This document shows, one piece after another, positions 40,201-43,200 of a stretch of DNA of 64,000 nt. The first letter of the stretch is position 1, and the number at the start of each line of letters is the position of its first letter. The DNA comes from Sipunculus nudus (Eukaryota; Annelida; Sipuncula; Golfingiida; Sipunculidae), in contig CM049306.1 in the NCBI GenBank assembly GCA_026874595.1, positions 16,577,019 through 16,641,018 of the forward strand, written 5' to 3'. Made by a program: the position numbers and the translations under genes. The notes under the pieces are model-generated. The model had not been told where the DNA came from and ran no database searches. It saw only the letters and a list, made by a program, of their open reading frames with translations.

Positions 40201-43200
40201 GAGGTCAATTTTGAGCAGAAACGACCTCTAGTGGAAGGGTGGATCTTCTGCATGAAGTTCTAATAACACATCTGTACCAATGTACAGATCTTGGCTTGTG
40301 ATGGGCTTTCCTTGTTTGCAAATATCCCCTGATTTTAGATTTAAGCTTGACTGCACAACTAGTGAAGGCATTCTGCAGCTATTCTGGATCTGAAACTTTG
40401 AACTTTGACTAACCCTGAGACTAGCATTGAGGCTTTCACCATACAATCCTGGACTTGCATGAAAGCTGGGACTCTTCAAGTGAATATTACTGAAATAATA
40501 AAACAAAACAAAACATCTTAGTAAGCACATATTTTAAAACAGGCAATAGTCTGTACTTAAAGTAGATTTTTCTACAGCTTTAATAAGAAAACTGCAATTA
40601 AAATTATTTTGTTGGCAAAGGAGTTAACAATGATATCATACAATCATACAGTTATTTGCTTCTTATTGATAAATGGAAATACATGTTTGCCAAGACACCT
40701 GTATATCATCATTCTCTTTATATACACACATATGCATAGATATATTGTTAATTGAGTATACCAGATTTCATTGCGTCTTGACTCAGACTGGGTTGGAATT
40801 TCCATTATAAAGCCCATTCCATTCATTTACAGAATAAAATTGTGTATCTGAATAAATCTAGATCTATGAAAGATGCAAGAACTGATAAATTAAAGAAAAA
40901 TTGTACACAAAATAAAAATAACATTGCTGATGTAAAACAAATGTAAAGGGACAAAACAATTTTCTTTTCATGCTTGGATGTCTTGATAATAACACTGCAC
41001 AGAAGAAGTGGCTCCTGAGGTGGCCTACAGATTCCTCTCTACTTATGTTGGAACGAAAATCAACAGTTCAAATAAAATTCCTGGGATCAAATGTTAATCA
41101 ATATGACATGCCTGGAGAGTCAAACCTAGATCACACAGTCTCTAAGGATGAAACATGTCTATCCCTGGAGCCAGGTTCTAGCTTTGTAAAAATCAGATCT
41201 ATGAACTAACAGGATTTTGTAGACATACAGATATGAGATGACCAATGGCATGCTCCTTTATGTATAAAGATTTCCATTTCAGGCTGGAACTGAGAAGTTT
41301 GAGATGAGAATGCTGTGGGTGAGAAATGCTAGATTCCTCTATGGTTTTCACTATGGTTTTCTAGACTCCTCTGACCCTACTTTTTCTCCTCAGGATGCAC
41401 ATTCTCATACACATAAACCCCTTACTGTACAGTGCCATTCTCAAGATATTTTCTTGGCCGACCCCTGGTCAAATGGCGCCGCTTTACAAATTCTACATCA
41501 TCAACCATCCAGAAGGAACCAAAATCATCTTCATATCTTACAAAACATTTATGCAGCGACAGATTTGTGCGAATTGCATTCTGTGTGGGGAGACAGCAGA
41601 AAAAAGACAAACATGGAATTAGCAAATGAGGACTGAAGCTGAGTCAAAGAGAAGCAGTGACTTGTCTGGAGCTGGCTGCTATGTTCACTGCTTTTATTTT
41701 TCAAATTTTTTTCTTTATTTCTCAAATTCCTTTAAATATTTAAACTTCAAATGGACAAGCCAGATTTTTTGTTCAGATTTTGGAATTTGCCAATAGAAAT
41801 CTACACAATAGTAAAACTATACAATGATAAACTCTTCTAAGAAAAAGGAAACCCACAAAGTAATGGGAAATGCTTAAGTGGAGGAAAATCTGGAATGCAT
41901 GGGGGAATTGTTTTGCATACACAGCAGCCAAAGCTCAAGTACAAGGTAACAGGAGTGCGGACATCAGGTCGCCTGCACGTACCCACTCATTTTCTGTGGT
42001 CGTCTCTTGTAGAACTCTATTTCATCTACTGTCCATACTGCCCCTTTAACATTCTCAACCCTCATAAAACATTTGTGAAGACTAAGGTTGTGTCGCACTG
42101 CATTCTACATGAAAATAAACAACACACAAAACAATAAATATGTGTTTAATGTCTATATACAATTAAACATGAATCAACTGTAACATCATTGTATCCAATG
42201 ATTAATATGGAAGAGACAGAACAAATATTTACCTAGCCAGCACATAAAATAATTATATAAAGAAATCATTTCCGTAAACCTTTTAGGCTTTCTATCTACA
42301 GTTTTCTAATGATGAAATTCTTGATGAGACACCTTATTTTCATATTGATACAGACACTGCAACATATTCTTATCTATTTTATAACTGTTATAATCTTAAA
42401 ATCTGGTGGAACACAGCTTGTCATGTCAGTAAGATCCATTCTCTATTCACAAACAACACATCACACTGGTAGGAACAAATAATCAATGTTATATTAGTTA
42501 GTGGCCTGATGAGTATCATAGAATTAAGCTTCTCTCTGTAGAATCACTGTATTTTGGAATTAAAAAATTACAATGGCAGATGTTATCAACTGAAGCACAG
42601 TCAGATTGGTGATGATATAATCTGTGTCACAAAGGATTGGCAGAAATATTTTTTTCTGTATGCTAGAAAATAAGTGTAACATCATTCAGTTCTGTCTCTG
42701 CGCAAAGGAGATCAAAGAAAGTCAATGTATAAACTTAAGAAAATTTGAATTATCAATTTAACCCAATGACACTATATAACAAAACTGTCTACACATTGCC
42801 AAATAATGGAATATTAACATAAAAACTTCAACTAGTGGCCATTGACTTCAGCTATTTGTCACTTTGTTGCAGCTACTCTTTGTCTTGTTTCTACAAGTAT
42901 ATGAGTAAATGTTTAACTGTACCTTCCATGTGGCTTGATTTTTCCGGAAAAATGCAAATGTGCCCATAAACCACTGGTAGATTTCATTCAAGGTTAGCTG
43001 TTTGTCAGGAGATTCTACAATTGCCTGAAAAAGTATAAACGGGTCACATAAATCACATCAGCTGTTATCATTTAAGCAAATATTATTTGTCAAATATCTC
43101 ATTTCATTATATCTTGTAAAGTTTATATCAAAATCATTAATATAAAATTACAAAAGAACACTGTATTAACTATTACTACAAATATCTTTATTTAGCCCAA

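What the first reader, a model, noticed from the sequence alone, without database searches (positions are those of the whole stretch)
41426..42104. Two forkhead half-exons in FoxP that the reading frame forces to be mutually exclusive
Exons B (42104-41983) and A (41580-41426) both enter in phase 0 and leave in phase 2, and both encode forkhead helix 3 plus wing. Including both shifts the frame and reaches TAA within 15 codons of exon A. Skipping both makes the next exon (40489) start with TAA in frame. Only one-of-two gives a full protein. Alternative forkhead halves are reported for insect FoxP; the double frame lock in this lineage is a strong structural observation.
Basis: partly seen in the sequence, partly recalled or inferred. 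Interest (0 to 1): 0.9.

Follow-up and report, generated by a model that had tools for sequence, protein, structure and literature searches.

The report
FoxP swaps half its DNA-binding domain
An invertebrate FoxP gene carries two interchangeable exons for the DNA-contacting half of its forkhead, and only use of exactly one gives a full protein; it is the same kind of switch already described in fly FoxP and human FOXP1, so it is a clear but ordinary example.

Summary
On the minus strand, exons B (42104-41983, 122 nt) and A (41580-41426, 155 nt) both enter in phase 0 and leave in phase 2. Of the four splice forms built, only B-alone and A-alone stay open through three further exons. B+A stops at the 14th full codon of A; neither stops at the first codon of the next exon. 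That exon (40489-40414) reads best as internal, so both bad forms are predicted NMD targets.

B is the canonical FoxP recognition helix and wing (33 of 40 residues equal FOXP2). A is the known alternative: Drosophila FoxP exon 8 oligos agree with A at 22 of 23 residues, a guide in human FOXP1 exon 18b at 5 of 6. Those exons are described as alternative forkhead halves, FOXP1 18/18b as mutually exclusive.

The lock is the arithmetic result of duplicating an exon whose length is not a multiple of three. It filters products; it does not make the splicing choice. No transcript and no regulator was seen. Lead: A's tail holds RGRPRK, an AT-hook-like core (label recalled; Pfam does not report it).

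The parts
53334..53481 (-). FoxP zinc-finger exon ([18 protein letters not shown]; the finger's last histidines are in the next exon); start set by eye at an AG
   Evidence: FOXP-CC profile match at 53321-53404, 35.9 bits; sequence; open frame into the next exons
52718..52805 (-). zinc-finger end and leucine-zipper exon ([29 protein letters not shown])
   Evidence: FOXP-CC match at 52715-52816, 47.5 bits
47352..47522 (-). exon after the zipper ([19 protein letters not shown]...)
45963..46206 (-). linker exon
45395..45471 (-). first forkhead exon ([14 protein letters not shown])
42923..43024 (-). second forkhead exon, shared by both forms, ends ...ATWK in phase 0
   Evidence: Forkhead match at 42869-43033
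41983..42104 (-). exon B: canonical recognition helix and wing, 122 nt, phase 0 in, phase 2 out
   Evidence: Forkhead match 42021-42107; 33 of 40 residues equal FOXP2
41426..41580 (-). exon A: alternative recognition helix, wing and RGRPRK tail, 155 nt, phase 0 in, phase 2 out
   Evidence: 22 of 36 residues equal B; 22 of 23 residues equal fly exon 8 oligos
40414..40489 (-). common exon C1, 76 nt, starts TAA, reads best as internal (donor gttagt)
38889..39091 (-). common exon C2 ([12 protein letters not shown]...)
36955..37243 (-). last coding exon C3, ends in TAG

Best explanation
This is an invertebrate FoxP gene with the ancient pair of mutually exclusive forkhead exons. The pre-mRNA joins the shared exon ending ATWK to either B or A, then to the same three downstream coding exons. 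B gives the canonical forkhead. A replaces the recognition helix and wing, including the position of FOXP2 His554 (His to Thr), so a zipper dimer carrying it should read DNA differently. The two exons arose by tandem duplication of one exon that entered in phase 0 and left in phase 2. Because its length is not a multiple of 3, double inclusion and double skipping both meet early stops upstream of exon junctions and should be removed by nonsense-mediated decay. The frame is a quality filter; the choice itself is presumably made by RNA-binding proteins acting on the splice sites. Shown: exon structure, phases, stops, homology, agreement with published fly and human exon sequence. Inferred: use of both exons in vivo, altered DNA specificity, decay of the other two forms, the regulator.
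For: Four splice forms built, two open. A and B homologous and each other's best non-self match in the genome. Zinc finger, zipper and forkhead of FoxP type in one open frame each side of the linker; FOXP1-4 are the best PDB matches of both forms. Fly exon 8 oligos: 22 of 23 residues as A; fly exon 7 oligo AVWTVD: 6 of 6 as B, 3 of 6 as A; human FOXP1 18b guide: 5 of 6 as A, at best 2 of 6 anywhere in the B form. Same order as in the fly, canonical first. FOXP1 18/18b described as mutually exclusive with different DNA preference. Third codon positions of A and B agree at 12 of 36, first and second at 24 and 28.
Against: No transcript was available, so neither exon A's use nor exclusivity is shown. 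No regulatory motif, intron pairing or spacing constraint that would explain exclusion was found. Exon A alone misses Pfam's cut-off. In one search an off-frame oligo reading also reached 4 of 6 residues with A, so single short matches carry little weight alone.
Confidence: 0.9

Rival explanations
1. Exon A is an alternative last exon, as exons 7 and 8 are in Drosophila: its donor is ignored, translation stops at the TAA that lies across the donor (CAG TAA), and a poly(A) site lies in the following intron. The lock would then be irrelevant for A.
For: Reading on past A gives a clean end...NGTVQ-stop. Fly FoxP forms differ by an alternative last exon.
Against: A has a good donor in the same phase as B's, which fits C1 exactly. 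The following 936-nt intron holds only one poly(A)-like hexamer, ATTAAA at 40584, about 840 nt past A.
Confidence: 0.07
2. Exon A is a dead or unused duplicate.
For: Only that no transcript was seen.
Against: Intact splice sites and frame; near identity to the fly exon 8 residues available.
Confidence: 0.02
3. In addition to A and B, forms that lack the second forkhead half (both exons skipped, or the intron after ATWK kept) are made on purpose as truncated zipper-only partners, like the fly intron-retention form; the 'lock' is then partly a source of product and not only a filter.
For: The fly has such an intron-retention form, proposed to dimerise without binding DNA. Here reading on past the shared exon gives a short tail and a stop.
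Against: The both-skipped stop lies 73 nt before a junction if C1 is internal, so decay is predicted. No transcript evidence.
Confidence: 0.2

Closest known systems
Human FOXP1 exons 18/18b, mouse 16/16b (Gabut et al. 2011; not read, seen through passages of PMC11701043, PMC5282733, PMC5423462, PMC8189919)
   Same: Alternative second half of the forkhead, one exon used instead of the other, reading frame kept; 18b guide residues match exon A at 5 of 6
   Different: Human exon lengths and phases could not be checked here; regulation by MBNL1/2 is shown in human cells and unsupported here
Drosophila FoxP exons 7 (isoform A) and 8 (isoform B) (PMC7776582, PMC4070984, PMC6372147: passages)
   Same: Same pair of types in the same order, joined to the same shared exon; 22 of 23 residues of exon 8 oligos equal exon A
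   Different: In the fly they are alternative last exons; here both continue in frame into three shared exons
Honeybee FoxP isoforms (PMC6219247: passages)
   Same: Two isoforms that affect the forkhead domain
   Different: Exon structure not seen
Santos et al. 2011, FoxP exon duplication (title seen in reference lists; paper not held)
   Same: From memory: places this alternative splicing at the base of Bilateria by tandem exon duplication
   Different: Not read; I cannot say whether molluscs or the frame arithmetic are treated there

Membership tests
FoxP subfamily | FoxP-type zinc finger and leucine zipper N-terminal to the forkhead | tested here: met
   Two FOXP-CC matches over the cut-off upstream in the same gene, one open frame from finger to linker
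FoxP subfamily | Forkhead of FoxP type | tested here: met
   FOXP2, FOXP4, FOXP1 and FOXP3 are the best PDB matches of both the A and the B form; Forkhead over the cut-off
Mutually exclusive FoxP forkhead exons (FOXP1 18/18b type) | Two homologous exons for helix 3 and wing between the same neighbours, interchangeable in frame | tested here: met
Mutually exclusive FoxP forkhead exons (FOXP1 18/18b type) | Alternative exon of the [12 protein letters not shown]...FGSFW type | tested here: met
   Fly and human oligo comparison
Mutually exclusive FoxP forkhead exons (FOXP1 18/18b type) | Transcripts use one exon or the other | not testable with these tools
   No RNA data for this genome
Fly-type alternative last exons | Each alternative exon carries its own stop and 3' end | tested here: inconclusive
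   Both exons have donors in phase with C1; A would end at once if its donor were ignored; one ATTAAA in its following intron
AT-hook | GRP core flanked by basic residues, recognised by a curated profile | tested here: inconclusive
   RGRPRK is in exon A, but Pfam returns only Forkhead at E up to 10, and a 23-residue piece finds nothing in the PDB at E up to 10; the motif is very short and HMMER's filters may drop it. The label is recalled

The most novel reading that the evidence does not exclude
The A-form is not just a weakened forkhead: it replaces the base-reading helix (FOXP2 His554 position to Thr) and at the same time supplies an AT-hook-like minor-groove clamp (RGRPRK) after the wing. 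The frame-locked swap would then toggle one dimerising protein between sequence-specific binding and binding guided by AT-rich tracts, a switch fixed near the base of Bilateria and kept as true cassette exons here and in vertebrate FOXP1, while flies turned it into alternative last exons.
Probability: 0.2. Interest if true: 0.5.

Novelty: new member of a known kind. Interest (0 to 1): 0.3.

Why it matters
It supports the view that the FoxP forkhead switch is ancestral, and suggests that the cassette arrangement with shared downstream exons, not the fly's alternative last exons, is the older state. It also gives an animal in which isoform ratios can be read from a few junction counts, with the two frame-breaking products as an internal measure of splicing error.

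Tried and rejected
Regulatory motifs: five word classes (YGCY of MBNL type, TGCT, GCATG of Rbfox type, PTB-like, YCAY; names recalled) were counted in seven introns against 300 dinucleotide shuffles each, 35 tests. YGCY is not enriched in the three introns around A and B (4, 4 and 4 against 4.5, 6.5 and 6.0 expected), though 3 of the 4 in the B-A intron lie within 80 nt of A. GCATG in the intron after A is 3 against 0.8 (10 of 300 shuffles reach it), unremarkable among 35 tests. PTB-like words exceed all 300 shuffles only in the C2-C3 intron, away from A and B.

RNA pairing as a docking mechanism: complementary words of 11 bases or more were found only within single introns (11 bases in the intron before B, and a 14-base palindrome in the B-A intron), none between different introns of the three; rejected as evidence. 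Steric exclusion: the B-A intron is 402 nt and a branch-like CTAAT lies 42 nt before A's acceptor, so no hindrance is indicated.

AT-hook by profile and by PDB search: nothing. Papers on AT-hook with FOXP1/FoxP and splicing terms: 0 in the held library; most subscription papers are not held, so this does not show the idea is new.

Mollusc FoxP splicing: one search listed 8 papers, none about it by title; none of the 8 was opened. Lineage: Chitin_bind_4 0 matches, molluscan hemocyanin domain PF14830 0 matches, C1q 141 matches from 150 scored candidates of 203. The tool warns that zero does not show absence; the hemocyanin zero does not help a mollusc reading. Structure prediction was not run: a spliced protein is not read letter for letter from the window.

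Single copy: one search also gives a weak FOXP-CC match at C4:33382179-33382280 that passes the cut-off only together with its neighbours in the frame (29.1 bits, E 0.05); not followed, so 'single FoxP' is likely but not proven.

Full report
What is there. The window is C1:16577019-16641018 of a 1.43-Gb genome in 153 contigs. A FoxP gene lies on the minus strand. Reading downwards: a zinc-finger exon 53481-53334, zipper exons 52805-52718 and 47522-47352, a linker exon 46206-45963, forkhead exons 45471-45395 and 43024-42923, exon B 42104-41983, exon A 41580-41426, and common exons 40489-40414, 39091-38889 and 37243-36955. The splice sites used are GT and AG. From the zinc finger to the linker is one open frame, and from the linker through B or A to the final TAG is one open frame. 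These are models from sequence; no transcript was seen, and exons upstream of the zinc finger were not sought.

Check of the claim. I built all four combinations. B only and A only are open to the end. B plus A reads ...[17 protein letters not shown]-stop: the stop is the 14th full codon within A, 112 nt before the next junction. Neither reads ...ATWK-stop at the first codon of the exon at 40489, 73 nt before the next junction. The exon at 40489 reads best as internal: its donor at 40413 fits in phase the acceptor before 39091, and the joined text LNASLR-AALAESN looks like the vertebrate FoxP tail (recalled). Both wrong products then have stops more than 50-55 nt upstream of a junction, which predicts decay (rule recalled). 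Read on instead as a terminal exon, it would end at the TAG at 40230-40228.

Is it more than chance? The two exons are homologous: 22 of 36 residues identical. In the genome A's best non-self match is B (42.2 bits; 7 matches listed, next 21.6 bits) and B's is A (42.9 bits; 40 listed, next 26.8 bits). Codon positions 1, 2 and 3 agree at 24, 28 and 12 of 36 codons, as expected for an old duplication kept by selection on the protein. Given such a duplication of a phase 0-to-2 exon the double lock follows by arithmetic (122 and 155 nt, both 2 mod 3). It is not an independent second observation.

What the exons encode. Joined with the shared first half, both are Forkhead domains over Pfam's cut-off (A form 90.8, B form 101 bits, cut-off 27), and FOXP2, FOXP4, FOXP1 and FOXP3 come first in the PDB for both. 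By itself A scores only 21.3 bits, below the cut-off, and it is missing from the 62 genome-wide matches. B equals FOXP2 at 33 of 40 residues; A differs from B at 14 of the first 36 positions, among them FOXP2 Val552 to Ile and His554 to Thr in the recognition helix and most of the loop before the conserved Trp (numbering recalled, and that His554 contacts bases is recalled). After the wing A carries a basic tail, [10 protein letters not shown].

Relation to known exons. Oligos printed in papers allow a direct test (all frames scanned, rows of at least 60% agreement listed). Drosophila FoxP exon 8 oligos (PMC4070984 passages; PMC7776582 passages) read [17 protein letters not shown] and WMVDDN: 22 of 23 residues equal exon A (my tally of the rows). 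The exon 7 oligo reads AVWTVD: 6 of 6 with B, 3 of 6 with A. One off-frame reading also gave 4 of 6 with A, a chance level to keep in mind. The primers described as spanning exons 6/7 and 6/8 put the fly junction after TGGAAG, the same phase-0 point, as I infer it. A guide in human FOXP1 exon 18b (PMC8189919 passages) reads DEFGSF: 5 of 6 with A, at best 2 of 6 in the B form. So A is the fly exon 8 / human 18b type and B the canonical type. Reviews call FOXP1 exons 18 and 18b mutually exclusive with different DNA preference (PMC11701043 passages; PMC5282733 passages). In the fly the pair are alternative last exons (PMC6372147 passages; PMC7776582). Santos et al. 2011 appears in reference lists but is not held; that it places the exon duplication at the base of Bilateria is recalled.

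Lineage. Probably not an insect: 0 Chitin_bind_4 matches (the tool warns that this does not show absence) and 141 C1q matches. Large C1q families and the gtccgtccg-rich repeat near 45220 remind me of bivalves (recalled). The molluscan hemocyanin domain gave 0 matches. I hold bivalve at about 0.7.

Mechanism. The frame tells which mRNAs survive, not how the spliceosome chooses. In human cells MBNL1/2 repress 18b. Here MBNL-type words are not enriched around A and B, no pairing between introns stands out, and spacing gives no steric reason. The regulator is unknown. Two features deserve a test: reading past A's donor gives an immediate stop (CAG TAA), so an unspliced A makes a clean terminal form like the fly's; and A's tail RGRPRK resembles an AT-hook core (recalled), without support from Pfam or the PDB.

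Verdict. Confirmed structure of a known kind. I saw no report of it in molluscs in the listings (20 of 80 papers listed; 14 of 14; 8 of 8; 15 of 136; 15 of 22; 7 of 7), which cover open-access papers only. Interest 0.3.

Noticed in passing
window 46901-47401, minus strand: An array of about 8 tandem copies (period about 58-63 nt, 81% matches) repeats the 3' end of the exon after the zipper together with its 5' splice site: 8 GTAAGT/GTTAGT donors, of which only the first (47351) leaves an open frame into the linker exon; the other 7 bring stops. A row of decoy donors in the same gene.
   Followed up: partly
G000 C8:34.66-34.73 Mb, C8:71.70-71.79 Mb, C9:37.56-37.57 and 39.12-39.18 Mb: Clusters of forkhead genes with the domain in one exon: 9, 17 and 7 of the 62 Forkhead matches, many with open frames of about 300 aa or more and 4 of the 17 with a TAA inside. 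A large lineage expansion of Fox genes.
   Followed up: no
window 41425-41420, minus strand: Exon A's donor holds an in-frame TAA directly after the codon it splits (CAG TAA), so an A that is not spliced onward ends at once.
   Followed up: partly
PMC13078869, human FOXP1 GRCh38 chr3:70972010-70972180: A human FOXP1 exon reported as NMD-inducing when included, used in early brain and raised by cycloheximide, may be exon 18b read together with exon 18, which would be the human form of the same lock. Its span is 170 or 171 nt depending on the coordinate convention; only 170 would be 2 mod 3. Its identity was not checked.
   Followed up: no
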